From: Caballeronia sp.
GTDB lineage: Bacteria; Pseudomonadota; Gammaproteobacteria; Burkholderiales; Burkholderiaceae
NCBI RefSeq assembly: GCF_028292365.1
Contig: NZ_JAQGMM010000091.1
Coordinates: 1-32,827, forward strand
DNA length: 32,827 bases
Reading direction: 5' to 3'
This document shows, piece after piece, positions 3,001 through 22,759 of the stretch. The first letter of the stretch is position 1. The number at the start of each line of letters is the position of its first letter. The translations under genes were made by a program, and so were the position numbers. The notes under the pieces are model-generated. The model was not told the origin of the DNA and made no database searches. It worked only from the letters and a program-made list of their open reading frames with translations.

Positions 3001-4165
3001 TCACGTGGCCCGGTTGCGGCGCGCCGCAGGCGACCAGCACCGTGCCCGGCTCGGTCTCAGGCGCTACGGCCACGCGAGCGGCAGACAAAGCGTCGCTCTC
3101 AAACCTGGCCGATACCAAACCCGCGCCGCGCCGGCCGCCCGTCACGAAGAGCGTTGCCTCGGCGAGGCCGTAGCACGGATAGAGCGCGGCGGCATCGAAG
3201 CCGGCAGACGCGAAGCGCGCGACAAACGCATCGAGCGTGTCGCGCCGCACGGGTTCCGAGCCGGAGAAAGCGAGCCGCCAACTCGACAGGTCAAGTTGCG
3301 CGACCGCATTGTCGCGAAGGCGTTCGGCACACAATCGATACGCGAAATCGGGTGCACCGGAAATCGTGCCCCGATGCCGCGCGATAGCCTGGAGCCAGCG
3401 CAACGGACGTTCAAGAAAATACTGCGGCGACATCAGCACGAGAGGAATGCCGCTGAAGACCGGCTGCAACATGCTGCCGATCAAACCCATGTCGTGATAA
3501 AGCGGCAGCCAGCTCACGAACACATCGTCGCTCTGCACGCCGAGGCCCGCCTTGATCGCAATTTCGTTCGCGATCAGATTGCCGTGGCTGACCATCACGC
3601 CTTTCGGCGTTCCCGTGGAACCCGACGTGTATTGCAGGAAAGCGATATCGGCTGGTTGCACGTCGTGGAGCGCGAAGGCGCGGGTGTCACCCGTCGAGCA
3701 CAGCCCATCCACCGCGATGATCTCTGCGTCCGGCGCCAGTTCGCCGTATTGCTCGGCGAAGCGCTCCTGCAACGCCGATGTGGTCAACACGTAACGCACG
3801 CCCGCATCCTGCGCAATCCCGCGTAATCGCGCCAGATGCTGCTCGCGCTTCGATTCCGGCGGATAGACCGGGACCGCAACGACCCCCGCATACAGGCAGC
3901 CGAAAAACGCACTCACATAGTCGATGCCGCTGTCCATCAGCAGCAACGCACGTGCACCCGCCGACCGCTGATCACTGAAGTACGCGGCTATGCATGTCGC
4001 GCGGCGATCGAGTTCAGCGTAGTCGTATTGCGCTTCGCCAGCCGCGTCGATGGTGATCAAGGCGGCCGCGTCCGGACGTTCGAGCGCCAGCGTACGGAGG
4101 CGGGCGGGCATTCCCGCTTCACCCGATGTCCACCTCTCCGTCAAGTCATTCACACTCGAGTTCAT
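1..4165 (-). CDS. NRPS starting FAAL-T-C-A(Asp), cut by the left window edge
   Basis: Open frame of 1,388 codons without a stop, entering the window edge; the missing part is the rest of the A domain and all later modules. Residues 1 to about 560 are a fatty acyl-AMP ligase: N-terminal GCLYAGVVAVPVYPP, the P-loop-like YTSGSTGTPKG near residue 178, then WLPLYHDMGLIG, the FAAL signature. A carrier domain follows, with FFASGGSSL and phosphopantetheine Ser630. Next comes a condensation domain with HHIATDGWS (His822/His823), then an A domain with FTSGSSGTPKG and the pocket segment STVAADLGHTVLFGAL. Its first pocket residues Asp1350, Leu and Thr are the beginning of the Asp code (DLTK..). Such an enzyme loads a fatty acid and couples it to Asp, which makes this the biosynthetic starter although it lies downstream of the TE-containing NRPS. 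The start ATG overlaps the upstream stop as ATGA, so translation is probably coupled. Domain order and the FAAL identity are clear; later modules are unknown. Confidence 0.95.
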   Translation of the reverse strand, partial: MNSSVNDLTERWTSGEAGMPARLRTLALERPDAAALITIDAAGEAQYDYAELDRRATCIAAYFSDQRSAGARALLLMDSGIDYVSAFFGCLYAGVVAVPVYPPESKREQHLARLRGIAQDAGVRYVLTTSALQERFAEQYGELAPDAEIIAVDGLCSTGDTRAFALHDVQPADIAFLQYTSGSTGTPKGVMVSHGNLIANEIAIKAGLGVQSDDVFVSWLPLYHDMGLIGSMLQPVFSGIPLVLMSPQYFLERPLRWLQAIARHRGTISGAPDFAYRLCAERLRDNAVAQLDLSSWRLAFSGSEPVRRDTLDAFVARFASAGFDAAALYPCYGLAEATLFVTGGRRGAGLVSARFESDALSAARVAVAPETEPGTVLVACGAPQPGHVIEIVDPVGGHTLMGDQIGEINVSGPSVAHGYWQRADASSSTFRPDGATRWLRTGDLGFVHDGQLYIAGRCKDLIIVRGKNLYPQDIEQAVEACCEFVRKGRVIAFAADIDGAEGPALALEIAPVMKKRFTAADIVAQLNRCVFDACGEVPVAVLLLNPAALPKTSSGKLQRAATRQGWQNRTLDAYALWERGHFVVGAAEADTPQQAPLDGLEKELAALWSEVLDLEVATRHAHFFASGGSSLTAARLAARIGERWRRPFEIGQVFELPTLAAMAGALSQAIEKPECESADIIPWQRSDELVVSHAQQRQLFACQLNPQSRAYHIATGIRLRGQLNIDALRHSVDILVERHAALRTSFVEMPGSENVYVPRIHPATSLDWMRADLLDGDFSEETLGKLAQRFAAEPFDLVQGPVLRVGLVRYGDNEHLLLLALHHIATDGWSMQIIVDEFVAHYRAAITGTPAAIAAPRVAYTDYAAWQHRWLSSSEARRQLDYWRNELGEEAPALALPFDRSPGAGTGNLAAARTPFTLPASLARQVRDAATRHGATPFIVLLAAYHAWLYRVTGQADIRTGVPVANRQRPETHGVVGFFTNTIVLRSVCMASLSVSALVAALRRAAIEGQAHQALPFDVLVERLNPARDAQGLPLFETTFNYLADDYPALERLPGLTASRYEIEEAHVKVPLALDLRESRGGGLRAYLTYASDLFDASSVERMAAQYQRVVEAFAAALLADDPAADRALAALDLLDAEEQAGVTAASRGRETNFSGEPVHMRVAEHAQIQPEALALIDGVEGLSYRELDQRAQRIACWLLDHGLHVGQPVAIIGDRSAAFVVAMLGVLKAGGAFVPLDAGNPPQRIEQTLRGCRAQFVLWEKEQAGFALEGLHQTTIDNARQHAHALARELPAVDSREAAYVIFTSGSSGTPKGVVLPHAALSNYVDAVLDRLALPPRSTFAMVSTVAADLGHTVLFGALASGGTLHLIDRDTTLDADCFARYMTQNS

Positions 4166-7100
4166 GACAGGTTCTCCGGCCGACGGTCGTGATCGTGGTC
4201 ACTCGCAGCACTGGAGGTGAGCGCACGCGCGAGGTCATCGAAAAGATCGCTGTGCCGCACGATATGCGTGTGATCCGCATCGATCTCGCTGACCACCGAG
4301 ACCCAGCCCGTCGAGTGTGCCGACCACATTGCAGTCGCTTCGCGTGCCGGGCGATAAGGCCGATGCCGTGCCCACCACAATTTCAGATCGACCGGCAGCG
4401 GCGCCCGTTCCGTGTAACGGACGATATGACCCAGGTGCCGCTGGAACAACATTACTTTGCTGAGCAGCGCGCGAGTGCTGACGTCGGCCAGGTCGCCTTG
4501 CATTGACGGCCATTTCTTGCCGGCATCGTCGAGCACTTTCTGCAGCTCGTGATCGGTCGCGCGATACGTACGCATCTGCTCGTGAGTCACCGGGGCTTCA
4601 TCGCCGGGCTCCCGATTGTCTTCGGCCTTCGGCACGTGTGCATCAATCAGGCCTACGAACGGCACCTCCCCGCCATCACGTGCCAGCACGCGCGCCACCT
4701 CGGTCGCGATCACTCCACCCACGGACCAGCCGATCAACCGGTATGGCCCGACCGGTTGCACCGTGCGAATTCGCGCGGCGTAGTCGGCAGCAAGCTCCGA
4801 CAAATCACCGGGCCACCAATCCTCTGTATAAAACGGCGCCTGCACGCCGTACACGTTCGCGACGCCATCGAGTGCAGCCGCAAGCAGTCGGTAGTCCGCG
4901 ACCAGACCTGATGCCGGGTGGATCGCGAAGACGATCGGCGCATCGGTGCGCTCGCTCATCGATACAACATTCGCAGCGGGCTCACCACTTGAGTCGCGTG
5001 CGCCAAGATACGCCGCGAGCGTGCGGACCGTCGCATGCTGGAACAACGCTTCGAGAGTCAAGCTCGCCAAGCCGGACTGAGCGCTCTTGGCGAGCACCTT
5101 GAGCGCGAGCAGCGAATGTCCACCTGCTTCGAAGAAGTTATCGGTGACGCCAAGGTCATCGCGCTCCAGCACTTCCTGCCAGATGCCAAGCAACTGCGTT
5201 TCGAGGGGCGTACTCGGCGCGGTTCTCTCAGCGCTCTTGCGATCACCCGGTTCGGGCAGCGCGGCACGATCGAGCTTACCGTTCTGCATGAGCGGCAGAC
5301 TCTCGAGCCACACCAGCACCGACGGCACCATATAACCCGGCAAACGACTTTCAAGTACACGGCGAACGGCTGCTTCATCGAACTGGTCACGATCCCCGAC
5401 CACGTAACCGACGATCCGCTTCGCCTCTCCCTCACCGTTCAGCGAAGCAACCGCTGCCTGCACACCGGGTGCTTCGCGCAACACCGCTTCGATCTCGCCC
5501 AATTCAATGCGGAAGCCGCGAAGTTTTACCTGGCTGTCCAGCCGCCCGAGAAAGTCGATGCTGCCATCCACTCGCCGCCGGCACAAATCGCCACTACGGT
5601 ACAAGCGTGCTCCCGGCATACGCGGGTCAGGCGCAAACCGTTCCGCGGTCAAGCCAGGTCGATCCAGATAACCGCGCGCAAGCGTCAGGCCGCCAATGCA
5701 CAACTCACCCAGCGCGCCGACCGGCGCCTCGTTACCGTGCCGGTCCATCACATAGACACTTCGCGATCCGTATGGCTCGCCAATCGACACGATCGCCTGT
5801 GCCGTATCCACCGCGCGCGTCTCGCGATACATGCACGCCACCGTGGTCTCCGTCGGGCCGTACAGGTTGTCGAGCCGGATCCGGGCGAGCGGCCCGTTGC
5901 GCCATTGCGCGAGTGCATCACCGGGAAGTCCCTCGCCGCCCACGGTGATCTGCCGCAATGCAGACAGGTCGTCCAAAGGTAGCGGCGTGCGCAACCATTG
6001 TTGCCAGTACGCGGTCGGAATCCGCGCGAACGTGACGCGACCGTCCTTAAGATGCCGGCTGGTCGTCTGGATGTCCCATAGCTGCGGACCACGCATCTCG
6101 ACCTGACCGCCTTGCATCAGCGCCGGCAGCATTTCATGCAGCGCCACGTCGAAGTTGATCGTCGACGATTGCAACTGGACAACGCTTGCATCGATTCCAT
6201 ATGTACCGATGAAATCGTCCAGATGGCGGCTGAGCGCAACATGACTGATCGCCACGCCCTTGGGCCGTCCCGTCGAGCCCGATGTGTAGATCACATAGGC
6301 CAGTTGTTCGGGATGAATGGAGGCATTGAGTGGATGGCCGGATGATGGTTCAAGCGCATTGATGTCGATGACTTCGCGGCCTGCGAAAAGCGGACCGCAA
6401 GTCGCGAACGTGGCGGCATCGGCGAGTACGCACGACAGTTGCGCGTCGTTAATCATGGTGCGCAGACGGTCCGCCGGATAGGCGGGATCAAGCGGCACGA
6501 ACGCCGCGCCGGACCGGAGCACACCGACCACTGCCGCGACCAATCCCACCGAGCGCGTCAGACACAGTCCCACGCGTGTCTCCGAGCCCATCCCTCGCGC
6601 AAGCAACGCGCGTGCGATGTGGTTCGACCAGACATCGAGTTCACCGTAAGAGAGGCGCGCACCTTCGCAATGCACGGCCCGAGCTTGAGGCTGACGCCGC
6701 GCCTGCGCGGCGATGCGTTCGCCGACCGGCATGAACGAGTGATTGCTGAGCGCTGGTCGGCTACCTTCCGGATCAAGCACGAGCTCAGCCAGATACGCAT
6801 GGTCATTCGTCGCGATCTGCTCAAGCAACGAGACGTAATGGCCCAGCATTCGTTCGACGGTTTGAGCGTCGAATACATCGCGGGCATAGTTCAACGAAAC
6901 CGTGATTCCATCGCGCCGTTCACGGACCGACAGCACCAAATCAAAACGCGCCGTACCCGTCGATGTTGCGATTGGCGAGACTCGCAGGCCAGGCAAGCTG
7001 AGCCCTTCGCCTTCCGTGCCGTGATCGTAGTTGAACATGACGCTGAAGAGCGGCGTATGCGCGAGGCTTCGGCCGGGATTCAGCGCGTCGACAACGCGGG

Positions 7101-10100
7101 CGAACGGTACGTCCTGATGCGCCTGCGCTTCGAGCACGCGTTCGCGAACGTGGCCGAGCAGCGTTTCGATGGTATCGAGTCCCGCCATCTCCGTGCGAAT
7201 GACCAGCGTGTTCACGAAGAAGCCGATAAGCGATTGCGTCTCAAGCCGGTCTCGCCCTGCAACGGGCACACCAACGCGGATGTCGGCTTGCCCGCTATAA
7301 CGTGCGAGCAAGACGTCGAAGGCAGCCAGCAGCACCATGAACGGTGTCGCCTGATGTCGTCTGGACTGCTCTTTGACTGCATCGATCACTGGCGCCGCGA
7401 GCCTGACATCGACCCGCGCGCCAGACTGATTGCGCGAAGCCGGCGGCGAGCGGTCGAACGGCAGTTCGAGCGCCGTCAATTCTCCTCCAAGCCGCTCACG
7501 CCAGAACATAAGTTCCGCGTCCGCCCGTGCTTGTTGTTCCGCGCCGTTCTGCCAGAGCGCGTAGTCGGCGTACTGGACCGGCAGAGGGGCGAGTTCGTGC
7601 GTGCGGCCTTGACGGATCGCTGTGTAAAGGCGCGAGAACTCGTCGAGGATGATCCGGCTCGACCACGCATCCGAGATAATGTGATGCGTCACGAAATGAA
7701 GCACGTGTTCGCAGTCGCCAAGCCGGATCAGCGTGACGCGAAACAGCGGTCCCTGCTCCAGCGAGAACGGCGCGCGGGAGATCGCATTGACAGTGTCCGT
7801 CACGCGCCTGGCTCTGCTTTCTTGCGGGACATCTTCCAGATCCAGCACCGACCAGCCCGGTTCGACGACATCGACTTGCTGCATCGCGACACCATCGACC
7901 TCAACAAAACGCGTGCGCAGGCTTTCATGACGCGCGACGAGCGCCGAGACTGCTTGACGCAGGATGTCGCGGTCGAGCGCGCCTTCCAGTTTCACTGCAC
8001 CCGCAAGGTTGTATGCGGGACTCTGTGGACTGAGGCGTGAGAAGAACCACAGGCGCTCCTGTGCCGGCGAAAGCGGGATGCTTAGCATTCCGTTTGGTCT
8101 GGAGGAGAGCACGACCGCTGACCCAGGCATCGCACCCAACGCGCCTTGCTCGATTGTTCGCGCCAGATCTGCCAGCGCCGGATACGCAAACAATTTCTGC
8201 ACCGGCAACTCAACGTTCAACGCCTCACGCAGCGCGGCCACCGCGCGCAATGCCAACAACGACTGCCCACCCAGTTCGAAGAAATTGTCGTGCCGACCGA
8301 TACGCTCGACGCGCAACACGTCCTGCCAGACGCCAGCGATGACCCGTTCTATCTCGCCCTTCGGCGCTTCCCAGATCCGTTCGGTTTGCTCAGGCAGCGG
8401 CAGCGCGTGCCGATCGACCTTGCCATTCGTGTTCAACGGCAGGCGGTCCATCACCACGATAAGACCGGGCACCATGTACTCCGGCAACACCGCGATCAGT
8501 TTTTCTCGCAGCCGCCCGGCGAGCGTGGCAGCGTCCGCGTGCTGCCCCACGCGACGCGAAACATACGCTACCAGCCGCGCGCCTCCCGTTCCTTCGTGCG
8601 CCGCGACTATTGCTTCGCCCACCTCCGGTTGCGCCAGCAACTGCGCCTCGACCTCTCCCAGTTCGATACGAAAGCCCCGGATCTTCACCTGATGGTCAAT
8701 CCGCCCCAGATATTCAAGGTGACCATCGGCCCGCCACTTCACGAGATCGCCCGTCCGATACAAACGTGCGCCGTTGCCGTTGAACGGGTCCGCCACGAAT
8801 CGCTCCGACGTCAACCCGCCCTGCCCGATATAACCACGCGCCAGCCCGACACCACCGAGGTACAACTCACCCGGCACGTTGGGAGGGACGAGCGCCATGC
8901 TCGAGTCGAGGACGTAAAGCTGCGTTCCCGCGACAGGACTGCCCAGAACCGGCGTAGCGTCCAGCACGCGACCGGCCGTCGACCAGATCGTGGTCTCGGT
9001 GGGACCGTACATATTCCATAGCTCGACGCCCTGTTCGTTCAGGTCGTGCGCCAGATCCGGCTGCAGGGCCTCGCCTCCGCACAGTCCCTTGAAGCGCACA
9101 AGCGGCGTCTGCGGCCAGCCGCCGGCCCGCAGCAGCCGCCAACCGGCAGGGGTCGACTGGAGCACCGTTGCCTTCGAGTCCTGCACCAGCCGTGCCAGCG
9201 CCGCGCCGTCCCGAGCCACCTCTCGCGTAGCCAGGACGATCCGGGCACCAACGACGAGTGGCAGATACAACTCAAGCGCGGCAATATCGAATGACAGCGA
9301 CGTCACGGCGACCAGCACGTCGTCCGCTGCGAGGCCGGGCTTCGCCTGCATGCTGTGGATGAAGTGGCTGAGTGCGTGGTGATGAACCATCACGCCCTTA
9401 GGCTGGCCCGTGGAACCAGACGTATAGATGACGTAGGCCAGGTTGTGTCCGTGCACATCCACGTGCGGTTTGTGCGACGGTTCGTCATCAAGATTCAGCG
9501 TGTCGAGCGTCAGCGTCGGCAGAGTGCTGAAGCGCTGTGTGATGGCGCTTTGCGTGAGTAACAAGCGCACGCCGCCATGGGCCATCATGTATGCCAGACG
9601 TTCCGCCGGATACTGCGGGTCGAGCGGCACATAGGCACCGCCAGCCTTCAACACGGCCAGCAAGCCGACCACCATCTCTACAGAACGCTCCAGGCCGATA
9701 CCGACCTTCACCTCAGGCCGTACACCCAGCCGCAGCAGTTTGTGCGCGAGCCGGTTGGCCCGTTCGTCGAGTTCGCGATAGGTCAACGTCTGCTCGGCGA
9801 ACACCAAAGCGATCGCATCGGGCGTCTTCATCGCCTGACGTTCGAACAAGTGGTGCACCGGCTCTGCCTGCGCAAATGTCTGGTCGTTGCGGCCCCACGC
9901 CAGTAGTTGCTGTTGCTGGCGATCTCCCAGCAGCGGCACCGCACGCGTGTCAGGCTGGCTCGCGACTGTCTCCAGCACAGCAACGTAACTGTCGAGAAGA
10001 CGCGAAGCCGTCGCCGGGTCAAAGAGATCGGTTGCGTAGGTCAAAGCGAGCTTGAGGCCTGCCTCATTAACCGATACATCCAGCGACAGGTCGAACTGCA

Positions 10101-13100
10101 CTGTCCCCGTGCCGCCGCTCAGCGTGCTCACTTCGATACCCGGCAGCTCAACTTGCGAGCGCGGCTCTGCGCCGTAATTGAACATCACCTGGAACAGCGG
10201 CGTATGCGCGATGCTGCGTTGTGGCTGCAGCAGTTCGACGAGCTTCGCAAACGGCACGCCGGCATGCGCCTGCGCGCCCACCATCCGGTCGCGTACCTCG
10301 GCCAACAACGCGCTGAATGGTTCGGTCCGGCGCGTGGCCATGCGGACCACCAGCGTGTTAACGAAGAAGCCTATTAGCGGCTCAGTTTCAAGGCGGTCGC
10401 GGCCTGCAACCGGGACGCCGACGCGGACGTCGTCCTGTGCGCCATAGCCTTGCAGCAGCGTCCCGAACGCGGCCAGCAAGGTCATGAAACGCGTGGCGCC
10501 GTGCTCGCGGGAGCGTTGATCAAGCGCATCGGCCAGCCCAGCGCCGATCGATCGCTCAACGACCGCGCCCGCATTGCTACGCACTCCACGACATACCCGG
10601 TCGACAGGCAACGCAAGCAGCGGTTGTTCGCCGCCGAGCTCTTGCTGCCAGTACGCGTAGTGGGTATCGAGTGCGGCTTCGTTGCGAGGGTTACGCTGCC
10701 ATAGCGCATAGTCACCGTACTGGATCGGCAGAGGCGCGAGATCAGCCGCTTCGTTGCGGATCGCCGCGCGATACAACTTCGAGAACTCGCGCAGCAGGAT
10801 GCCTTGCGACCACGCATCCGATACAACATGAGGCATCGCGAAATGCAGGACGGTCTCGTTCTGAGCACGTGCCAGCAACGTGACGCGCAGCATGGGCCCA
10901 TGTTCGAGATCGAAGGGCTCGCGGCCCAATTCAAGCAAGCGCACGTCAAGTTCGTCCTGACCCACGACGCTTTCTTCATGCCAGCCATAGAGCGCTTGAG
11001 GGCTATCAAGTGCGGCGTTATCGACTACTTGCCACGGTTGTCCATCCTCTTCGACAAAACGCATACGCAGGCTTTCGTGTCGCTCGAGCAAGCGATCAAG
11101 TGCTCCGCGTATGGCTTGCCGGTCGAGCGCGCCGCTCAAGTTGACGGCGCCCGTAATCGTGTATGCGGCGCTGTCCGGTTCGAGCTTCCATAGAAACCAC
11201 AATCGCTCCTGCTCATGGGTCAGCGGAATGCGAGCCGCAGACTCGCGCGGCAAAATGACGTCTGCCGCACGCGCCTCGTGCAACGCCAGTTCGGCCGCCA
11301 GACTTTCAAGAACCGGATGCAGGAACAGCGTCTGCAGCGAGACATCGCGGCCGAGTTCCTGACGAATCCGCGATGCCACCCGCATCAGCAACAAGGAGTG
11401 GCCGCCGACCTCGAAGAAATTGTCGGTCATGCTCAGACCGTCACGGCCCAGCACCGACTGCCAGATCGCCAGCAACGCGGCTTCCAACTCCGTACGCGGC
11501 GCAATGCGCTGGCGCGCCAGTTCCACGCCCGGTTCGGGCAGCGCCGCGCGATCCACCTTGCCGTTCTGCATCAGCGGCAAGTGCTCCATCCACACCAAGG
11601 CCGATGGCACCATGTAACCCGGCAGACGGCTCTGCAGGATGCGACGGACCGTGGCGTCGTCGGCGTCGCCCACCACGTAGCCCACGAGCCGTTTCGCATC
11701 GCCTTCGCCGCGCAACGCGGCTGCCGCCGCCTGCACGCCGGGCGCTTCGCGCAGCACCGCTTCGATCTCGCCGAGCTCTATGCGATAACCGCGCAATTTC
11801 ACTTGCTGGTCCATCCGCCCGAGGAAGTCGATGCTGCCGTCCGCGCGGCGGCGGCACAGATCGCCAGTCCGATACACCCGGCTGCCGGACGGTCCATTCG
11901 GATCAGGAACAAAACGCTCCGCGGTCAGCCCGCCACGCCCGAGATAACCTCGCGCAAGCGTATGGCCGCCAATGCACAATTCGCCTAGCGCGCCGGCCGG
12001 CGCCTCGTTGCCGTCGGCATCGCAGACGTGAACCGAGCGCGACGGATAAGGACCGCCAATCGATACGATCGCCTGGTCCTCGTCCTGAGCGCACGTTTCG
12101 CGATACATGCAAGCGATGGTCGTTTCGGTCGGACCGTACAAGTTGTCGAGCCGGATAGACCCAAGCGGACCGTTGCGCCATTGCCGCAACGCGTCGCCGG
12201 GTAATCCTTCACCTCCCACCGTGATCTGCCGCAATGCCGCAAGCGTTGCAACCGGCGGCGGTTCCCGCAACCACTGCTGCCAGTAAGCCGTCGGGATGCG
12301 CGCGAACGTCACCTTCTCCTCGATCAGATGACGGCTCGTGGTCTCAGGGTCCCAAAGCTGCGGGCCGCGCATCTCGACCTGACCGCCGCTCAGCAGCGCC
12401 GGCAAAAGTTCGTGCAGGGCGACGTCGAAATTGATCGTCGATGATTGCAGCACCTTGTCGGCTGCACCAATGCGATACGTGCCGATGAAGTCGTCGAGAT
12501 GCTGGCTCAGGGTGCCATGATTGATCGCCACGCCCTTTGGACGCCCCGTCGAACCCGAGGTGTAGATGACATAGGCGAGTTGTGCTGGATGAATGGGTGC
12601 AATGAACGCGGCATCGGCTTCGGCATCGTCTTGCAGCGGCCGGTCATCGGCGACATGGATCGGCTCGCGATCACGCAGCAATCCGCCCAGGCGCTCAAGG
12701 CCCGTACGGTCGACCAGCACTCGCACGATCCCTGCGTCGTCGAGCATCGCCGCGAGTCGTTCAAGCGGATAGGCCGGATCGAGCGGCACGAATGCAGCAC
12801 CTGACTTCAGCACGCCAAGCACCCCCGCAGCTAGCGCGGTCGAGCGTTCGACACACAAGCCGATGCACTCATCGGGACGAACGCCGAGGCGATTCAAGCG
12901 GCGTGCAATACGATTCGTCCAGCGCTCGAGTTCACCATACGAAAGCCGGTCACCCTCGCAATGAAGCGCAGGCGCAAGCGGATGTTTCGATGCCTGCCGG
13001 CTAAAATCCCCCCCGACCGGTTCGAATACCGTGCTTGCCACAGGCTTATTCGGCACGCCATAAGTACCCGCGCGGCTTAGTGCAATCTGCGCGAGCGGCT

Positions 13101-15429
13101 GGTCCGCTGCCGCACTCACTTGCCCCAGGATCTCGACGTAGTGCTCAAGCATCTGCCCGACGATGGTTTCATCGAACAGGTCCGCCGCATAGTTGAACGA
13201 CAGGCGCAGTTCATCGTCGCGCTCGACGGCGTTCAGCACCAGATCAAAGCGTGCCGTCGGCACATGGTTCGCCACCTCCGACACTCGCAGTCCCGCCACG
13301 CTGATATCCGTGTGCTGCACACGCGTGTGATTGAACATCACCTGGAACAGCGGCGTCTGCCCGATGCTGCGCTCAGGTTGCAGCGCCTCGACAAGTTGTG
13401 CAAACGGCAGTGCATCATGACGATGCGCTTCAAGCACACGCTCATGAAGCTGGGCAAGCAAGGTCCCGAACGACGCAACGCTTGCCAGGTCTGCACGGAT
13501 CACCAGCGTGTTGACGAAGAAGCCGATCACCCGCTCCGTTTCCAGCCGGTTGCGTCCTGCAACCGGCACGCCGATCCGCACGTCCTTCTGGCCGCTGTAA
13601 CGCGCGAGCAGGACCGCGTATGCCGAGAGCAACATCGTGAACAGCGTCGTTTGGCGGCTCGCTGCCGCTTGCTTGAGCGACCGGGCAAGCCCCGAGTCCA
13701 GCGTGACTTTCACGCGCGCGCCCCGCGCGTTGCGCGTCGTCTGAATGCCCGTGCGACTCTTCGCAATCGGCAGTTCAAGCGCTGGCTGCGTCCCGCCCAA
13801 CTGCTTGATCCAATATGCAAGATGCGGATTGTTCTTGTCGTCGCCCAACCACTCTTTCTGCCAGGCGGCGTAATCGCCGTACTGCACAGTCAACGGTTCC
13901 GCCACCGGCGCCGCTGCCTTGCTTAGCTGTTCGTATGCCGCGATGAACTCATCGAGTAAAAGCTTGACCGATGCGTGATCGGAGATGATGTGATGCATCG
14001 ACACATGCAATACGTGAGAGCCGGCCGTTTCACTCAGCAACGCGACGCGCAAGAGCGGCCCGCGCGTGAGGTCGAACGGCTCCAGCGACAACGCCTGCAA
14101 GCGGCCTTCAAGCGGGCTGGCACCGGCTGAATCGATATCAGTCCAACCGTAGCCAGTTTCACCCACGACCTGCCATGCCTGGCCATCGGATTCAACAAAA
14201 CGCGTCCGCAAAACTTCGTGCCGCTGAACCACGTGAGCGAGCGCGCCACGCAACTTGTCGATGTGCAGCGTCCCTTCGAGCCTCAACGCGCCCGACAGGT
14301 TATAGCTCGCGTCATCCGGATCAAGTTGCCACAGGAACCACAACCGCTCTTGCGCGGACGATAGCGGAAAGCGCTCTGAACGCCCTCCAAACGCGACGAT
14401 GGGCAACTGCTCGCCCGACATACCGCGCTCACGCAAACGCAAGCGAAACGCCTCGCGTTTTTCCGGCGGCAAACTTGCATATGTTTGAGCGACAGCTTGC
14501 AGGCCGCCTGCCGCGGGCTTTGTGCCTTGTGGATTGAGTATTGCGACTTCCGGCTTCACGGCAACCGCCTCTTCCACATTCTTGCGAGCCTGCCGCTTCA
14601 GGAACGGACAGGCATCCTGCGCAGCAACGTTATGGTCGTCGAGGAAATACTGCTTCCACTCGAGATTGCCTGCATCGCCGTAGAAACCCAGGTCCGGATG
14701 CGCAGGGGTTTCGTCCCACGTCTCCAGGCGCTTGCGAACCTGATTGCGCGCCTCGCGGCCTATGACCTTGTTGGTGATCGTATCGACAAATACGCTGCGC
14801 GGCTGGAACAACAGCACCATGCCCGCGCCGAGGTTGCGGCTGTGGCGCAGCTTGAACGAGGGACATGCGCAGACCACGAACATCTCCACGCCCGCGAACG
14901 AAAATTCCCACTCTTCATGCGACGGCTCGGGCTGCTGATCCGCAGCTGGATCAGGGTCGACATTGTGAAGATGCTGGAGCGTCTTCCAGAATAGTTCGTG
15001 ATACTCATCGTGTGAAAGCGGAACGGTGTCCGGCTCGAAGAACACCGCGATGTTGTTCTTGCGATACTGCGGCAGTGAAGCAAGTTCCGCGAAAGTCTGC
15101 ATGGTCGCGGGCAGATCGCGGATGTCTTTCTCTTTGCCGCTGACGAACGAGTAGAACATCTCGCCGCGCCGTTCCGCCGTCGTACCGAAGAAGCACGGAT
15201 AGGCCGGATGCATCACCTGCTCGCGCAAGGTCTCATACGAGGCATCGAGCCAATGCGGCAGATCGATTTCAGCACCGATCAAGCGGCCCGCGATGATGCG
15301 GCTTTTCCAGTCGCCCGGATCGAACTCGCGCGCAGAGTTCGCGGAGCTTACGGCGTTCGCCGCATCAAGCGATTTCACCGGCTTGGCGGGATTTTGCTGC
15401 GTCGTCTCTTCGTTTGTCAGCATCTTCAT
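4162..15429 (-). CDS. NRPS with N-terminal YqcI/YcgG N-oxygenase-like domain: YqcI-CAT-CAT-CAT-TE
   Basis: Uninterrupted 3,755-residue protein. Residues 35-285 are a YqcI/YcgG-family domain (HPAYPCFFGT at 74-83, CACPSF at 187-192, terminal CPF at 274-276); the characterised relative GntA is a haem-dependent N-hydroxylase. Then follow C1 352-790 (HHIISDH), A1 800-1300, T1 Ser1345, C2 1400-1845, A2 1855-2345, T2 Ser2390, C3 2450-2890 (HHIISDA), A3 2900-3395, T3 Ser3439 and a thioesterase 3497-3750 (GWSVGG, Ser3569; Asp3596; His near 3720). Pockets read by alignment to GrsA: A1 D-V-H-R-I-V-L-I-A, A2 D-I-L-Q-L-G-M-I-W (glycine type), A3 D-V-H-R-I-V-L-V-A. A1 and A3 therefore probably load the same unusual amino acid around a Gly. 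No epimerisation domain is visible. C2 has PHVVSD, so the first His of HHxxxD is replaced while the second is kept. A second ATG at 15423 has better spacing (7 nt) from the GAGAGG ribosome site and may be the true start. It likely completes and releases the siderophore chain. Confidence 0.97.
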   Translation of the reverse strand: MKMLTNEETTQQNPAKPVKSLDAANAVSSANSAREFDPGDWKSRIIAGRLIGAEIDLPHWLDASYETLREQVMHPAYPCFFGTTAERRGEMFYSFVSGKEKDIRDLPATMQTFAELASLPQYRKNNIAVFFEPDTVPLSHDEYHELFWKTLQHLHNVDPDPAADQQPEPSHEEWEFSFAGVEMFVVCACPSFKLRHSRNLGAGMVLLFQPRSVFVDTITNKVIGREARNQVRKRLETWDETPAHPDLGFYGDAGNLEWKQYFLDDHNVAAQDACPFLKRQARKNVEEAVAVKPEVAILNPQGTKPAAGGLQAVAQTYASLPPEKREAFRLRLRERGMSGEQLPIVAFGGRSERFPLSSAQERLWFLWQLDPDDASYNLSGALRLEGTLHIDKLRGALAHVVQRHEVLRTRFVESDGQAWQVVGETGYGWTDIDSAGASPLEGRLQALSLEPFDLTRGPLLRVALLSETAGSHVLHVSMHHIISDHASVKLLLDEFIAAYEQLSKAAAPVAEPLTVQYGDYAAWQKEWLGDDKNNPHLAYWIKQLGGTQPALELPIAKSRTGIQTTRNARGARVKVTLDSGLARSLKQAAASRQTTLFTMLLSAYAVLLARYSGQKDVRIGVPVAGRNRLETERVIGFFVNTLVIRADLASVASFGTLLAQLHERVLEAHRHDALPFAQLVEALQPERSIGQTPLFQVMFNHTRVQHTDISVAGLRVSEVANHVPTARFDLVLNAVERDDELRLSFNYAADLFDETIVGQMLEHYVEILGQVSAAADQPLAQIALSRAGTYGVPNKPVASTVFEPVGGDFSRQASKHPLAPALHCEGDRLSYGELERWTNRIARRLNRLGVRPDECIGLCVERSTALAAGVLGVLKSGAAFVPLDPAYPLERLAAMLDDAGIVRVLVDRTGLERLGGLLRDREPIHVADDRPLQDDAEADAAFIAPIHPAQLAYVIYTSGSTGRPKGVAINHGTLSQHLDDFIGTYRIGAADKVLQSSTINFDVALHELLPALLSGGQVEMRGPQLWDPETTSRHLIEEKVTFARIPTAYWQQWLREPPPVATLAALRQITVGGEGLPGDALRQWRNGPLGSIRLDNLYGPTETTIACMYRETCAQDEDQAIVSIGGPYPSRSVHVCDADGNEAPAGALGELCIGGHTLARGYLGRGGLTAERFVPDPNGPSGSRVYRTGDLCRRRADGSIDFLGRMDQQVKLRGYRIELGEIEAVLREAPGVQAAAAALRGEGDAKRLVGYVVGDADDATVRRILQSRLPGYMVPSALVWMEHLPLMQNGKVDRAALPEPGVELARQRIAPRTELEAALLAIWQSVLGRDGLSMTDNFFEVGGHSLLLMRVASRIRQELGRDVSLQTLFLHPVLESLAAELALHEARAADVILPRESAARIPLTHEQERLWFLWKLEPDSAAYTITGAVNLSGALDRQAIRGALDRLLERHESLRMRFVEEDGQPWQVVDNAALDSPQALYGWHEESVVGQDELDVRLLELGREPFDLEHGPMLRVTLLARAQNETVLHFAMPHVVSDAWSQGILLREFSKLYRAAIRNEAADLAPLPIQYGDYALWQRNPRNEAALDTHYAYWQQELGGEQPLLALPVDRVCRGVRSNAGAVVERSIGAGLADALDQRSREHGATRFMTLLAAFGTLLQGYGAQDDVRVGVPVAGRDRLETEPLIGFFVNTLVVRMATRRTEPFSALLAEVRDRMVGAQAHAGVPFAKLVELLQPQRSIAHTPLFQVMFNYGAEPRSQVELPGIEVSTLSGGTGTVQFDLSLDVSVNEAGLKLALTYATDLFDPATASRLLDSYVAVLETVASQPDTRAVPLLGDRQQQQLLAWGRNDQTFAQAEPVHHLFERQAMKTPDAIALVFAEQTLTYRELDERANRLAHKLLRLGVRPEVKVGIGLERSVEMVVGLLAVLKAGGAYVPLDPQYPAERLAYMMAHGGVRLLLTQSAITQRFSTLPTLTLDTLNLDDEPSHKPHVDVHGHNLAYVIYTSGSTGQPKGVMVHHHALSHFIHSMQAKPGLAADDVLVAVTSLSFDIAALELYLPLVVGARIVLATREVARDGAALARLVQDSKATVLQSTPAGWRLLRAGGWPQTPLVRFKGLCGGEALQPDLAHDLNEQGVELWNMYGPTETTIWSTAGRVLDATPVLGSPVAGTQLYVLDSSMALVPPNVPGELYLGGVGLARGYIGQGGLTSERFVADPFNGNGARLYRTGDLVKWRADGHLEYLGRIDHQVKIRGFRIELGEVEAQLLAQPEVGEAIVAAHEGTGGARLVAYVSRRVGQHADAATLAGRLREKLIAVLPEYMVPGLIVVMDRLPLNTNGKVDRHALPLPEQTERIWEAPKGEIERVIAGVWQDVLRVERIGRHDNFFELGGQSLLALRAVAALREALNVELPVQKLFAYPALADLARTIEQGALGAMPGSAVVLSSRPNGMLSIPLSPAQERLWFFSRLSPQSPAYNLAGAVKLEGALDRDILRQAVSALVARHESLRTRFVEVDGVAMQQVDVVEPGWSVLDLEDVPQESRARRVTDTVNAISRAPFSLEQGPLFRVTLIRLGDCEHVLHFVTHHIISDAWSSRIILDEFSRLYTAIRQGRTHELAPLPVQYADYALWQNGAEQQARADAELMFWRERLGGELTALELPFDRSPPASRNQSGARVDVRLAAPVIDAVKEQSRRHQATPFMVLLAAFDVLLARYSGQADIRVGVPVAGRDRLETQSLIGFFVNTLVIRTEMAGLDTIETLLGHVRERVLEAQAHQDVPFARVVDALNPGRSLAHTPLFSVMFNYDHGTEGEGLSLPGLRVSPIATSTGTARFDLVLSVRERRDGITVSLNYARDVFDAQTVERMLGHYVSLLEQIATNDHAYLAELVLDPEGSRPALSNHSFMPVGERIAAQARRQPQARAVHCEGARLSYGELDVWSNHIARALLARGMGSETRVGLCLTRSVGLVAAVVGVLRSGAAFVPLDPAYPADRLRTMINDAQLSCVLADAATFATCGPLFAGREVIDINALEPSSGHPLNASIHPEQLAYVIYTSGSTGRPKGVAISHVALSRHLDDFIGTYGIDASVVQLQSSTINFDVALHEMLPALMQGGQVEMRGPQLWDIQTTSRHLKDGRVTFARIPTAYWQQWLRTPLPLDDLSALRQITVGGEGLPGDALAQWRNGPLARIRLDNLYGPTETTVACMYRETRAVDTAQAIVSIGEPYGSRSVYVMDRHGNEAPVGALGELCIGGLTLARGYLDRPGLTAERFAPDPRMPGARLYRSGDLCRRRVDGSIDFLGRLDSQVKLRGFRIELGEIEAVLREAPGVQAAVASLNGEGEAKRIVGYVVGDRDQFDEAAVRRVLESRLPGYMVPSVLVWLESLPLMQNGKLDRAALPEPGDRKSAERTAPSTPLETQLLGIWQEVLERDDLGVTDNFFEAGGHSLLALKVLAKSAQSGLASLTLEALFQHATVRTLAAYLGARDSSGEPAANVVSMSERTDAPIVFAIHPASGLVADYRLLAAALDGVANVYGVQAPFYTEDWWPGDLSELAADYAARIRTVQPVGPYRLIGWSVGGVIATEVARVLARDGGEVPFVGLIDAHVPKAEDNREPGDEAPVTHEQMRTYRATDHELQKVLDDAGKKWPSMQGDLADVSTRALLSKVMLFQRHLGHIVRYTERAPLPVDLKLWWARHRPYRPAREATAMWSAHSTGWVSVVSEIDADHTHIVRHSDLFDDLARALTSSAASDHDHDRRPENLS
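5245..6717 (-). repeat. A3 adenylation-domain copy of a duplicated module
   Basis: Partner of the A1 copy at 11530-13032. The substrate pocket differs only at one conservative position (Val3197 here, Ile1105 in A1), so both probably bind the same substrate. The N-terminal parts of the two A domains are less alike than the core from the YVIYTSGSTG motif onward. Confidence 0.8.
11530..13032 (-). repeat. A1 adenylation-domain copy of a duplicated module
   Basis: This DNA encodes A1 of the large NRPS and closely matches the A3-encoding stretch at 5245-6717. Shared protein segments include QSSTINFDVALHE, RGPQLWD, FARIPTAYWQQWLR and ITVGGEGLPGDAL. The DNA is also near-identical in places, for example GTACA(A/G)GTTGTCGAGC around 12139 and 5861. 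A2 lies between them and is clearly different (glycine code). A recent duplication or gene conversion of a whole A domain is inferred. Confidence 0.8.
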
Positions 15430-15650: not shown

Positions 15651-17087
15651 CTAGTGTGACGCCGGCGCCTTCACATCCAGCTCGGCAACGAGTGCCTGCA
15701 CCCAGTCGTCCGGGATGATCGGTTGGTGGTACGTGCACTCACCCGACACCACCGTCGAGCCATGCAGGCGACCATCGGGAATCAGGACCATGTCGCCTTC
15801 ATGCATCTTGAGCTGCATGCCGACGTTGCCCCAGAACAGCATGTCACCTTCCTGAATCGTGACGAGCCGATGGTCGTTATGCACATGCGTCGTCGAACAC
15901 ATTTCATGTGGCTCGATGAATGTCTCGCGGTCAATATCAGGGCACTCGGCATCAATCCGCTTGCTGATGCGGCGCGCAAACTCGCAGTATTGAGGGATCG
16001 CTCCAAGCCATTGCAACTGCTCGCCGAGATCCCAACGGCCGCGTTGCGCCAGACGTTCGCCCGCTACCGCACCCGACACGCATTGCTCGAACGCGGTATT
16101 GCCAAAGCGATCCGTCACGGTTTGCAGCGCGGTTGCAAAACGTCCGACCAACTCAACCTTGCGCGCTTCTGCTTCGCCAGGTCGCCGGCCCGCCGGCTGC
16201 AGCCACGCGCACGCACGCTCGAGGGCAAGACCGAAAGCCAGCCACTCGGCTTCGGCAGCAAACACCGCGCCGGTCAGCGCAAATGCGCGATCCGGACGCC
16301 GGGCGAGTGCATACAGCAGATTGGTTTTGGCCATGCTCGTCGGCAAATAGAACTGCCAGTACGCGTGCTGCTGACGTGTTACGCCGCAAGTAGCAGCTAC
16401 CCGATGCAGCAAGGCGTCGTCGGGAAGGTCACCTTCGAGTGTCGGCCACGCGTCTTGCGGCAACGCGTCGAAGTAACCGTTCGCCGTTGCCCGGGCCACC
16501 GCACGCCGCTTCGACGGCGCAAGCGCCCAGCGCTGGACCATGATGAAACGCAGCCCTTCTTCCAGATAGTCATTGCGCATCAGGCGCGCAAACGTTGTAT
16601 CCCAGAACGCGCTTTCATCGTCGATGATGCGTGCAAGCCGCGCACTCGCAGCGGCCACGCTTTCTCCTGCCGGCGACGCATTGCTCAGGTACGAAAGCGC
16701 ATAAGCTTCAAGGAACGGCGTGAGTCGTGCACCCAGCGTCCTGACGTCGTCGCGATAAAACTCCGTGAAGCGTTCCCAGTCCGCGGCCTCGCTGCTGCGT
16801 GGCATGCGCGCGACCTCCAGTTCGTAGATCGACAGCAGCGTGCGGTTCGACGCCAGCGACGGCAACCGGCTGACATTGTCGGCACGCACGGGCTTCATGA
16901 ACTTGAGGAATTCAAAATCTTCAGGGCGCAATGGCCGGCGATGATAGTCGTCGTCGAGCAGTAATTCATCAACGGTGGCGCTGCGAAACGGATGCGCGGT
17001 CGCGAACTGCCTGATCAACGTCACGAACTCTTCGCTTCGTCCGGCAAAGGGTTCGAAGTCGAACAGCGCAGGATAAGAAAACGTCAT
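15651..17087 (-). CDS. SznF/GrbE-like metalloenzyme: alpha-helical (haem-oxygenase-like) region plus C-terminal cupin
   Basis: 478 residues, close to the length of SznF, the N-nitrosating enzyme of streptozotocin synthesis. Residues 1 to about 350 are predicted helical, with QFYLPTS at 245-251 and GAVFAAEAEWLAFG at 273-286, resembling haem-oxygenase-like di-metal oxidases. Residues 390-460 form a cupin with THVHNDH (His401, His403, His406), Glu413 and LHG (His442). His401/His403/His442 have the same spacing as the three-His iron site I recall for the SznF cupin. I could not find the HxxxDxxH signature expected near residues 300-320, so the di-iron site is uncertain. The gene starts within the stop of the thioesterase gene (ATGA overlap), inside the siderophore operon. 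I infer that it oxidises an Arg-derived substrate to an N-N(O)OH ligand together with the YqcI domain of the next gene. An unrelated cupin oxidase is possible. Confidence 0.78.
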   Translation of the reverse strand: MTFSYPALFDFEPFAGRSEEFVTLIRQFATAHPFRSATVDELLLDDDYHRRPLRPEDFEFLKFMKPVRADNVSRLPSLASNRTLLSIYELEVARMPRSSEAADWERFTEFYRDDVRTLGARLTPFLEAYALSYLSNASPAGESVAAASARLARIIDDESAFWDTTFARLMRNDYLEEGLRFIMVQRWALAPSKRRAVARATANGYFDALPQDAWPTLEGDLPDDALLHRVAATCGVTRQQHAYWQFYLPTSMAKTNLLYALARRPDRAFALTGAVFAAEAEWLAFGLALERACAWLQPAGRRPGEAEARKVELVGRFATALQTVTDRFGNTAFEQCVSGAVAGERLAQRGRWDLGEQLQWLGAIPQYCEFARRISKRIDAECPDIDRETFIEPHEMCSTTHVHNDHRLVTIQEGDMLFWGNVGMQLKMHEGDMVLIPDGRLHGSTVVSGECTYHQPIIPDDWVQALVAELDVKAPASH

Positions 17088-17905
17088 GAATGAAAGCTCC
17101 TTGGACCGGCCGCGCCGGCGGAATCAGTGAATGCAGTGCGTGAAACTGCGCTTGGCGCCAGCGCGGGGACGCGGTTCGCGAAGGCCGCGGGCGTTAGCGT
17201 GTCCTTGATCGAAGCCACGATCGCGTTGATCAATTCGGCGCATGCGGTATCGATGAAAAAATGGCCGCCGTCGATCACGCGCTGAGTAAAACGTCCCGAC
17301 GTCTCGTGCGCCCATGCCGACAAATTCTCCGATTGTTCGGATAACGAATCGTCTCTGCCGCCTAACGCCAGTAAAGGACATGCGAGCGGCGCACGCAATT
17401 CATTACCGGTACGAACGTAGGTCGCGCAAAGATGAAAGTCGGCGCGAAGCACAGGCAGCGCAAGATCGAGAAATCCGCGATCGCCGAGCAGTTCTTCGGG
17501 CGTCGCGCCGAGCCGCCGGAGCTCATCGATCATCGCTTCGTCGGTGCAATCCAGCCAACTCGCGTCGAGTGTCCGGCAGGCTGGCGCCGCGCACGCCGCC
17601 GCACCGAACCACAGGGGCGTGAGGCCATGAGCGCGCCGCAACCAGTGCGCCAGTTCGAGACCGGCCAGCGCACCCATGCTGTAGCCGAAGATTGCGAACG
17701 GTCCGTCGATTGCCCGCAAGGCTTCGCGTCCCAGTACGTCCGCCACGTCCGGCCAGCGGTGCAGCGCAGGCTGCGCGCGTTTCGCACCGTGACCTGGATA
17801 GTCGAGGGCGTGAAGGCGTATCCACGATGGCAACAATGCGCTCCACCCCCGATAAACCGCCGCACCTGCTCCGGCGAACGGCAGACAGATCAGCGTGACA
17901 TTCAT
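17084..17905 (-). CDS. Type II thioesterase of the siderophore NRPS
   Basis: 273-residue alpha/beta hydrolase of the GrsT/RifR type. It opens with LICLPFAGAGA and PGHG, the hallmark start of editing thioesterases. The nucleophile motif is GYSMG (Ser76), followed by GGRDD (acid) and GGHFFID (catalytic His). Such enzymes hydrolyse wrongly loaded or stalled acyl groups from carrier proteins in the cytoplasm. A Ser/Ala-rich tail of about 35 residues beyond the usual end is unusual and may be disordered. It follows mbtH after 12 bp and overlaps the next gene by 4 bp, so it is part of the NRPS operon. Confidence 0.92.
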   Translation of the reverse strand: MNVTLICLPFAGAGAAVYRGWSALLPSWIRLHALDYPGHGAKRAQPALHRWPDVADVLGREALRAIDGPFAIFGYSMGALAGLELAHWLRRAHGLTPLWFGAAACAAPACRTLDASWLDCTDEAMIDELRRLGATPEELLGDRGFLDLALPVLRADFHLCATYVRTGNELRAPLACPLLALGGRDDSLSEQSENLSAWAHETSGRFTQRVIDGGHFFIDTACAELINAIVASIKDTLTPAAFANRVPALAPSAVSRTAFTDSAGAAGPRSFHS

Positions 17906-17917: not shown

Positions 17918-18142
17918 TCAGGCCGCTTTGGCGCCGGCATCGGCCGCCATCGCTTGACGCAAGCTGAGCGGGCGCATGTCGGTCCACACGGCGTCGATGT
18001 ACTCAAGACATTCGTCCTTCTTGCCGGTCTTGCCTACGGCCGTCCAGCCGGCGGGCAGCGCCTTGTAGTCCGGCCAGATCGAATACTGTTCCTCGTGGTT
18101 CATGACCACGTTGTAGGTCGTGTTTTCGTCACCCCAGCTCAT
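17918..18142 (-). CDS. MbtH-like NRPS accessory protein
   Basis: 74-residue protein with the family signature [19 protein letters not shown] followed by [14 protein letters not shown] and [10 protein letters not shown]. MbtH-like proteins bind A domains and make them soluble and active. Placed directly before the NRPS genes, it probably serves the A domains of this operon. An AAGGAG ribosome site lies 5 nt before the ATG. A Fur-type operator and a promoter lie just upstream. Confidence 0.97.
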
Positions 18143-18243: not shown

Positions 18244-18873
18244 TCAGAGTCCGAATGCCAGCGCGCCCGCGTAACCGTCCAGCTCATCCAGAGACGCGAA
18301 ACGCAACGCTGGGGGGACCTGCGAGTTGGTTACATCGATTGATTTCAGTCCTTCGCCAATACCCGCGCCAGTCGCTTTCAACAGCGCCTCTTTCGCAGTC
18401 CAGCAGCGATAAAAATCACGCACGGTCCCGATCCGCCGCGCTTCCCCGGGCGCGCAAACCATGTCGAGCAGCGCGCGCCAGTCGAGTGACGAATCGATCG
18501 CCTCGATATCCACACCCACCGCTCGGACCGCCGACAAAGCAACCAAAACGCGCGCGCCCGAGTGCGACACGTTGAACGACAACCCCGGATGCTTAGCCAG
18601 CGACGGCCGTCCGTATTTGCCCACCTCGAACTGCAGTTGCGCCGGATCGCAGCCTAAATGCGCGCCGAGAATTCCCCGCAAGACCGAGCGGGCAACCGCG
18701 AAACGCACCCGGTCCGCCTGCTGCGCGTAACGCGCCATCCGCGCGATCTCGCTTGCGCAAAGGTGGCGGCATGCGGCGGCTGTATCGGTGTCCAGGCTCA
18801 GTTCCACACGCCATAACTCGACGTCGGCGGGCCAGCGCCCGGCTGCCGGAATCGGGATCAACGCGGGGGTCAT
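18244..18873 (-). CDS. Sfp-type 4'-phosphopantetheinyl transferase
   Basis: 209 residues. It transfers phosphopantetheine from CoA to the Ser of carrier domains, here Ser1345, Ser2390 and Ser3439 of the large NRPS and Ser630 of the FAAL protein. Family motifs are complete: NVSHSG (101-106, His104), GVDIE (120-124, with metal ligands Asp122 and Glu124) and WTAKEALLK (158-166, Lys161 and Glu162). It lies upstream of mbtH on the same strand, 101 bp away, with its own promoter and a Fur box. A start at 18873 gives the normal length, although the ribosome site is weak. Siderophore-dedicated activation is inferred from position and Fur control. Confidence 0.95.
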   Translation of the reverse strand: MTPALIPIPAAGRWPADVELWRVELSLDTDTAAACRHLCASEIARMARYAQQADRVRFAVARSVLRGILGAHLGCDPAQLQFEVGKYGRPSLAKHPGLSFNVSHSGARVLVALSAVRAVGVDIEAIDSSLDWRALLDMVCAPGEARRIGTVRDFYRCWTAKEALLKATGAGIGEGLKSIDVTNSQVPPALRFASLDELDGYAGALAFGL

Positions 18874-19010: not shown

Positions 19011-19607
19011 ATGGAAACGATGAACCCCGGCGTCGGTGCCGACGCTCTGAACGTGCTGATGACACGCCAGTCGCACTGGCCGCTGGCCGAACCCGCGCCC
19101 GACGATTCCCAGCTTCAGCAGATTTTCGATGCCGCCCTGCGCGCGCCCGATCACGGCGCGCTACGGCCGTGGCGCTTTGTGCTGATTCGCGGCGACGCGC
19201 GGCTGAAACTCGGTGAATTGCTGGTCGATCTCGCTTGCGCCCGGGCTCCCGGCGAGCCGCGTTCGGCGCATGAACACCGTGGCCGACGCGCGCTGGCCGC
19301 GCCCGTTGTGATAGCGCTCGTGGTGTCGCTGACGCGCGAGACGAAGGTGCCTGAAGTCGAGCAGGTGCTGTCCGTCGGGGCCGCGGCCATGAACATGCTG
19401 AACGCTATTCATGCGCTCGGTTTCGGTGGTTTCTGGGCGACCGGTCCGGATAGTTACGAGCCGCAAATGCACCGCGCGCTTGGGCTGGCCGAGCGTGATC
19501 GTCTGCTTGGATTTTTGTTTGTCGGCACGCCGCCCGACGGCGTGCGGGCGGTCGAGCGGCCGTCGAGCGGCCGCTATGTGACTGAATGGCTCGAAGCCTG
19601 CGCCTGA
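19011..19607 (+). CDS. Nitroreductase-family flavoprotein (YdjA-like)
   Basis: 198 residues. The N-terminus NVLMTRQSHWPLAEPAPDDSQ leads into AALRAPDHGALRPWRFVLI, typical of small YdjA-like NAD(P)H-dependent, FMN-binding nitroreductases. The C-terminal GFGGFWATGP and FLFVGTPP also fit. The usual R-S-(V/I/T)-R start is replaced by TRQSHW, as in YdjA relatives (RRSxP). The physiological substrate cannot be told. It is divergent from the PPTase gene and shares the Fur box region, which suggests, but does not prove, a role in iron or N-oxide metabolism. An alternative start is the Met at 19020. Confidence 0.85.
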   Translation: METMNPGVGADALNVLMTRQSHWPLAEPAPDDSQLQQIFDAALRAPDHGALRPWRFVLIRGDARLKLGELLVDLACARAPGEPRSAHEHRGRRALAAPVVIALVVSLTRETKVPEVEQVLSVGAAAMNMLNAIHALGFGGFWATGPDSYEPQMHRALGLAERDRLLGFLFVGTPPDGVRAVERPSSGRYVTEWLEACA

Positions 19608-22734: not shown

Positions 22735-22759
22735 ACGTGGCGTCCTTTAGTGGTGTCGC

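What the first reader, a model, noticed from the sequence alone, without database searches (positions are those of the whole stretch)
14575..15429. YqcI/YcgG (GntA-type) N-oxygenase domain fused to the N-terminus of an NRPS
Residues 35-285 of the 3,755-residue NRPS form a complete YqcI/YcgG domain, continuous with the first condensation domain through a normal NRPS N-terminal linker (LPPEKREAFRLRLRERG). A characterised member, GntA, is a haem-dependent N-hydroxylase of an Arg derivative. As I recall, the gramibactin pathway uses stand-alone tailoring genes (grbD/grbE) for its diazeniumdiolate residue. A fusion would place N-oxidation directly on the assembly line and also sits where a docking segment would take the chain from the FAAL-NRPS. 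I cannot check whether this fusion has been described.
Basis: partly seen in the sequence, partly recalled or inferred. Interest (0 to 1): 0.85.

Follow-up and report, generated by a model that had tools for sequence, protein, structure and literature searches.

The report
Arginine-oxidising domain fused to siderophore synthetase
A soil bacterium's peptide-making enzyme carries, fused to its front end, the haem enzyme thought to start turning arginine into an unusual iron-binding amino acid; the fusion is real, but fusions of this kind are already in print.

Summary
Residues 36-285 of the 3,755-aa NRPS (window 14575-15324, minus strand) form a YqcI/YcgG domain (PF08892, E 2e-64), in frame with C-A-T-C-A-T-C-A-T-TE; four other genomes of the genus have the same fusion. 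It is the GrbE arginine N-oxygenase of diazeniumdiolate (graminine) siderophore pathways: GrbD is next door, the haem-ligand Cys is kept, and the modules read Gra-Gly-Gra. Further cluster genes lie on contig C363 of the same genome. The kind of fusion is known: Hermenau 2019 mentions GrbE homologues fused to NRPS, and tistrellabactin MobF has grbE fused to its start. Oxidation on the assembly line is not supported: free L-graminine rescues grbD/grbE mutants of P. graminis, and the A domains carry the graminine code. I add that two fusion types exist (GrbE-C-A, GrbE-FAAL), that one clade of all fused rows is rejected (AU p 0.011), and that the old NRPS N-terminal segment survives behind the fused domain. 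A member of a known kind; whether the tether matters stays open.

The parts
4162..15429 (-). Fused NRPS, 3,755 aa: GrbE (YqcI/YcgG)-C-A(Gra)-T-C-A(Gly)-T-C-A(Gra)-T-TE
   Evidence: ORF; Pfam; codes
14575..15324 (-). GrbE/YqcI-YcgG domain, residues 36-285; predicted haem-thiolate ligand Cys79
   Evidence: Pfam E 2.2e-64; AglA Cys44 aligns to C79, invariant in 10 of 10 rows of alignment A1
14380..14574 (-). Linker (residues 286-316, fast-evolving) plus retained NRPS N-terminal segment (317-350)
   Evidence: comparison by eye with unfused NRPS N-termini of G022/G023/G042; dN/dS
13060..14379 (-). first condensation domain (residues 351-790)
11500..13029 (-). A domain 1, code DVHRTGLIAK (graminine-like, 9 of 10 positions of the published code)
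   Evidence: published code
8410..9879 (-). A domain 2, code DILQLGMIWK (glycine-like; assignment recalled)
5230..6729 (-). A domain 3, code DVHRTGLVAK (graminine, exact published code)
4255..4935 (-). thioesterase domain (residues 3499-3725)
   Evidence: Pfam
15651..17087 (-). GrbD homologue (SznF-like; cupin His triad kept, diiron site mostly lost)
   Evidence: 52% identity to Tistrella MobE; SznF E 7.6e-32; residue map (ligand positions recalled)
17084..17905 (-). type II thioesterase
   Evidence: PF00975 E 5.4e-38
17918..18142 (-). MbtH-like protein
   Evidence: PF03621 E 1.4e-23
18244..18873 (-). 4'-phosphopantetheinyl transferase
   Evidence: PF01648 E 3.2e-14
2..4165 (-). FAAL-T-C-A NRPS, cut by the contig end; its A code is DLTKVGHVGK in relatives G033, G030 and G029 and DLTKIGHVGK in G036; DLTKVGHVGK is published for OH-Asp

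Best explanation
This is the GrbE arginine N-oxygenase of a lipopeptide diazeniumdiolate siderophore pathway in a Caballeronia-type bacterium, joined to the NRPS that in unfused sisters is encoded just downstream. The domain binds haem through Cys79 and hydroxylates free L-arginine on the guanidine. The neighbouring GrbD protein rearranges the hydroxyarginine and forms the N-N bond to give free L-graminine. A domains 1 and 3 of the same polypeptide then activate graminine, and the TE releases a peptide predicted as acyl-OHAsp-Ser-X-Gra-Gly-Gra. The fusion came from loss of the boundary between adjacent grbE and NRPS genes; the domain works much as its stand-alone relatives do, and the tether at most keeps supply next to the consumer. 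Shown here: domain, frame, conservation, neighbours, codes, more than one fusion or fission. From papers on relatives: Arg origin, need for grbD and grbE, haem-dependent Arg N-oxygenation by ChmN. Inferred: that this protein does the same, how the fusion arose, and the product.
For: Pfam and AglA matches. AglA haem ligand C44 and positions F152, R166, R179, F182, 196 and R200 align to C79, F184, R198, R211, F214, R228 and R232, each invariant in 10 of 10 rows (residue roles from passages of PMC12866846; position 196 is Lys in the paper). A GrbD homologue is next door in the window and is held in 53 of 55 loci L030-L084. Graminine codes; my reading of the first four MobF A domains gives the first four codes of the published table. 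On C363 of the window's genome: an NRPS tail like that of the FAAL-NRPS, a TauD oxygenase 92% identical to that of relative G033, the TonB receptor (95%) and the start of the third NRPS (85%); G033 also has Peripla_BP_2 and FecCD genes. Only one PF08892 match in the genome. Tistrella makes graminine-containing siderophores, with L-Arg as the graminine source, in a cluster whose GrbE homologue is fused (PMC10391617 passages). Free L-Gra restores gramibactin in grbD and grbE mutants (PMC6771848).
Against: No activity has been shown for this protein. ChmM, the GrbD-like partner of ChmN, was not active on free hydroxyarginines in vitro, so the true GrbD substrate is open. Module 1 has DVHRTGLIAK, one residue off the published code. 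Repeated change between fused and unfused states could mean the tether is useful. G000 is 98.75% complete in 681 contigs, so a second GrbE outside the assembly is not strictly excluded. I did not check whether Tistrella has a second, unfused copy.
Confidence: 0.8

Rival explanations
1. The tether matters: the fused domain holds GrbD close and passes unstable dihydroxyarginine, or fresh graminine, to the adjacent graminine module.
For: In 8 of 8 C-type fusions the next A domain has the graminine-like code DVHRTGLIAK. Dihydroxyarginine made by ChmN was gone after a week at room temperature (PMC10849742 passage). The tree needs at least 6 changes between fused and unfused, 3 of them forced by well-supported branches.
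Against: In FAAL-type fusions the first A domain is graminine-like in only 4 of 9 readable rows; in Tistrella graminine is the third module. Stand-alone GrbE serves NRPSs with the same Gra-Gly-Gra order, plus a fourth module, in sister Caballeronia (G022, G023). Residues 286-316 evolve fast.
Confidence: 0.13
2. Oxidation on the assembly line: the domain hydroxylates arginine while it is bound to a T domain.
For: Physical fusion next to the module; ChmM inactive on free hydroxyarginines.
Against: Graminine codes on modules 1 and 3 (of the other codes in G033, DAEDIGAITK is unresolved); free L-Gra rescue in P. graminis; ChmN acts on free L-Arg; FAAL-type fusions put the domain beside a fatty-acid loader.
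Confidence: 0.04
3. The fused domain is a catalytically dead scaffold or docking piece.
For: It sits at the N-terminus, where a partner NRPS would meet this one.
Against: Haem-contact positions kept and dN/dS 0.06-0.13; it is the only family member found in the genome.
Confidence: 0.02
4. Assembly or frameshift artefact.
For: Draft genome, 681 contigs, contamination estimate 5.7.
Against: The same fusion in 4 other assemblies of the genus and, more distantly, in L034, L056 and L077.
Confidence: 0.01

Closest known systems
Tistrellabactin MobF (Tistrella mobilis pTM2)
   Same: GrbE homologue fused to the start of an NRPS, GrbD homologue (MobE, 52% identical to the window's) just upstream; product and Arg origin published
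   Different: In MobF the GrbE domain is joined to FAAL/CAL; here to the C domain of a graminine module. GrbE domains 52% identical
GrbE-NRPS fusions mentioned in Hermenau 2019 (PMC6771848)
   Same: [quoted passage not shown] may already include this class
Gramibactin GrbD/GrbE (Paraburkholderia graminis)
   Same: Same two enzymes; P. graminis C4D1M locus L049 has a GrbE match at 78% identity with a GrbD homologue upstream
   Different: GrbE stand-alone, FAAL gene about 2.8 kb downstream
ChmN/ChmM of chalkophomycin
   Same: Haem (Cys47) Arg N-oxygenase paired with an SznF-like protein with decayed diiron site (passages)
   Different: Separate proteins, in Streptomyces
AglA (PDB 9uba, 9ubb, 9ub3)
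   Same: YqcI/YcgG family, haem contacts conserved
   Different: Stand-alone; native substrate AMPn-Arg

Membership tests
YqcI/YcgG (PF08892) | profile match above gathering score | tested here: met
   217.6 bits against 27, profile 2-210 of 211
YqcI/YcgG haem N-oxygenases | axial Cys and haem-contact residues | tested here: met
   C79 and six further positions, invariant in 10 of 10 rows of A1
YqcI/YcgG haem N-oxygenases | haem binding and guanidine N-oxygenation | not testable with these tools
   needs protein
GrbE of graminine pathways | adjacent GrbD homologue with cupin His triad | tested here: met
   H401, H403, H442; 52% to MobE
GrbE of graminine pathways | NRPS A domain with graminine code in the cluster | tested here: met
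   module 3 exact, module 1 at 9 of 10
GntA (guanitoxin) | NCBIfam NF041366 curated cut-off | tested here: not met
   47.2 bits against 145
Diazeniumdiolate siderophore cluster | siderophore receptor and beta-hydroxylase-type genes | tested here: met
   TonB receptor and TauD on C363 of the own genome. Peripla_BP_2 and FecCD seen in relative G033, not sought in G000
Diazeniumdiolate siderophore cluster | product with M-30 (NO) loss and Fe(III) binding | not testable with these tools
   needs culture
GrbE-NRPS fusion exactly as in tistrellabactin | fused to FAAL/CAL domain | tested here: not met
   here the partner is a C domain

The most novel reading that the evidence does not exclude
GrbE has been fused, more than once and to different partners, because tethering the arginine N-oxygenase to the synthetase has a function. 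In the GrbE-C-A(Gra) type it makes a graminine factory on the synthetase, with GrbD docking to it and handing the unstable intermediate on, possibly with N-N bond formation on a carrier-bound substrate, which would explain why ChmM fails on free hydroxyarginine.
Probability: 0.1. Interest if true: 0.6.

Novelty: new member of a known kind. Interest (0 to 1): 0.22.

Why it matters
The fusion marks a graminine siderophore cluster in Caballeronia relatives (graminine compounds bind iron and release NO, PMC6771848). It also gives fused and unfused sister clusters that share the Gra-Gly-Gra module order. That makes the question left open in the tistrellabactin paper (does the fusion matter for biosynthesis?) directly testable.

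Tried and rejected
Rejected: assembly artefact; GntA membership; dead domain; one clade of all 18 fused rows (AU p 0.0112) and one clade of the 10 FAAL-type rows (p 0.000293). One clade of the 8 C-type rows is allowed (p 0.576), although the free tree put L056 apart. MbtH-GrbE fusions mentioned in PMC6771848 were looked for in the GrbE frames of 78 loci; none was seen at E 1e-6.

Led nowhere: the plasmid search matched 54 records, of which 20 were listed; only the first (Tistrella) covers more than 5% of the query. The code DAEDIGAITK of the third NRPS in relatives was not assigned. The serine and glycine readings of codes are recalled, and so are the seven SznF diiron and three cupin positions used.

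Papers were seen as: PMC6771848 parts 1-2 of 3; PMC10391617, PMC10849742, PMC9679993, PMC12866846, PMC12971057 and PMC11705231 passages only; all others as search listings.
Full report
What is there. The minus-strand ORF 4162-15429 encodes 3,755 aa. Pfam places YqcI_YcgG at residues 69-276 (E 2.2e-64) in front of three C, three A and three T domains and a TE. It is the only match to this family found in the window's genome. The finding's coordinates 14575-15429 are residues 1-285.

It is not an artefact. In the genus search 10 of 58 genomes have a PF08892 match (12 matches). Five matches, the window's included, lie in open frames of 3754-3775 aa, one (G028) in a frame of 4095 aa, and three in frames of 330-338 aa; the other three are two copies in frames of 284-285 aa and a partial match in a frame of 272 aa. 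The five have the same domain order. The domain is 92-96% identical to the window's in the other four, with dN/dS 0.06-0.13, against 0.10-0.48 for residues 286-316 (the 0.10 rests on a dS of 2.3) and 0.66-0.86 for residues 1-35.

What it is. The domain is a GrbE of graminine biosynthesis. The neighbour at 15651-17087 is 52% identical to MobE, the GrbD homologue of tistrellabactin, and resembles SznF at E 7.6e-32. At ligand positions recalled by me it keeps the three cupin histidines (H401, H403, H442) and one of seven diiron residues, the pattern described for ChmM (passages of PMC10849742). Haem contacts named for AglA (PMC12866846 passages) are conserved, Cys44 as C79. A type II TE, MbtH (17918-18142) and a PPTase follow.

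What the assembly line makes. My codes for the first four A domains of Tistrella MobF are the first four of the published table. In the window, module 1 reads DVHRTGLIAK, module 2 DILQLGMIWK and module 3 DVHRTGLVAK, the published graminine code. The window ends inside a FAAL-NRPS. In relative G033 this protein has DLTKVGHVGK, published for OH-Asp, and a third NRPS (2,595 aa) has DVWHVSLIDK and DAEDIGAITK. TauD, a TonB receptor, a periplasmic binding protein and FecCD accompany it. In the window's own genome contig C363 (7,739 bases) holds an NRPS tail like that of the FAAL-NRPS, TauD (92% to G033's), the receptor (95%) and the start of the third NRPS (85%). By elimination (loader on one protein, TE on another) the order is FAAL-NRPS, third NRPS, fused NRPS, so the predicted peptide is acyl-OHAsp-Ser-X-Gra-Gly-Gra (Ser and Gly codes recalled, X open). 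The fused NRPS shows three condensation-type domains for three modules and no dual C/E motif, so L-graminine is predicted; megapolibactin, plantaribactin, gramibactin and tistrellabactin have D-graminine.

How the fusion arose. Their NRPS N-terminal segment is recognisable in the fused protein between the domain and C1 (by eye). So the domain was added in front of an intact NRPS start and did not replace it.

How widespread. A scan of genome contigs gave 78 loci, the best of 344 stretches. Of the 55 loci L030-L084, 53 hold a GrbD homologue (not L071, a 3.1-kb contig, nor L083). With the window this makes 56 rows: 8 are GrbE-C-A (window, L030-L034, L056, L077), 10 are GrbE-FAAL (L037, L038, L058, L062, L065, L074, L075, L078, L079 = Tistrella, L084) and 38 are stand-alone (recounted in 63). 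The other 23 loci (L085-L107), distant and with no GrbD found in the DNA held, were left out of the tree. In a family search 48 of 398 genomes matched at 1e-20 (51 matches); of the 44 strongest, 17 lie in frames over 1,500 aa (the 7 weakest were not entered, all in frames under 300 aa). Among the 38 stand-alone rows, the next NRPS-type gene begins within about 170 nt with FAAL in 10 and with C in 9; FAAL follows 2.3-3.2 kb on in 12; none was found in 7. The same two gene orders are thus seen unfused as fused, which suggests that grbE is fused to whichever NRPS gene follows it.

How often. Fused against unfused needs 6 changes on the tree (5-7 over bootstrap trees, and 3 forced by well-supported branches). 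One clade of all fused rows is rejected (p 0.0112), and so is one clade of FAAL-type rows (p 0.000293); C-type rows are compatible with one origin (p 0.576) (with the long-branched L083 left out). The tree cannot tell gains from losses, several branches are long, and the places of L078, L079 and L084 are unsure.

Mechanism. The best reading is the stand-alone chemistry: Arg to (di)hydroxy-Arg by the haem domain, to graminine by GrbD, then loading by A1 and A3. Free L-Gra rescues grbD and grbE mutants of P. graminis (PMC6771848), and ChmN oxidises free L-Arg (PMC10849742). For a role of the tether: the module after GrbE has the graminine-like code in 8 of 8 C-type rows. Against it: the first module does so in only 4 of 9 readable FAAL-type rows (L058, L065, L074 with 9 of 10 positions readable, L075; not L037, L038, L078, L079, L084; L062 not readable), and two unfused sisters have the same Gra-Gly-Gra order, followed by a fourth module. 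Oxidation on the line remains a minor reading; that ChmM was inactive on free hydroxyarginines keeps the GrbD substrate open.

Known or not. PMC6771848 (2019) already says that GrbE homologues occur fused to MbtH-like proteins or NRPS. [quoted passage not shown] In four paper searches and the passages I read, I saw no description of the GrbE-C-A(Gra) order as such, but the 2019 set may contain it and its supplements could not be read. The finding is real and of a described kind; interest is modest.

Noticed in passing
window 1-4165; L147 (G000:C363): The window's contig ends inside the second adenylation-type domain of the FAAL-NRPS; C363 of the same genome holds an NRPS tail, TauD, TonB receptor and the start of the third NRPS.
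   Followed up: yes
L147:1-2610 and L029:7-5961: The FAAL-NRPS ends with an extra condensation-type domain followed by a TauD oxygenase gene, perhaps an interface domain for Asp beta-hydroxylation (that idea is recalled).
   Followed up: partly
window 4162-15429: No epimerisation domain or dual C/E motif in the fused NRPS, so both graminines may be L.
   Followed up: partly
fused NRPS residue 1533 (second C domain): The second C domain reads PHVVSDA where HHxxxDG is usual (rule recalled); PHVVSDA or PHIVSDA was found in 7 of the 8 C-type fused proteins scanned (not in G036 with that pattern) and also in unfused G022 and G023.
   Followed up: partly
A domain 1, window 11500-13029: All 8 C-type fusions have DVHRTGLIAK in the module next to GrbE, while unfused sisters G022 and G023 have DVHRTGLVAK there.
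   Followed up: partly
L011, L012 (G036, G028): A second, divergent YqcI/YcgG gene of 284-285 aa elsewhere in two genomes of the genus.
   Followed up: no
window 21044-25209: OpuAC/BPD/ABC transporter genes of glycine-betaine type beside the cluster, not siderophore-type.
   Followed up: no
window 19011-19607: Nitroreductase-family gene next to the cluster on the opposite strand.
   Followed up: no
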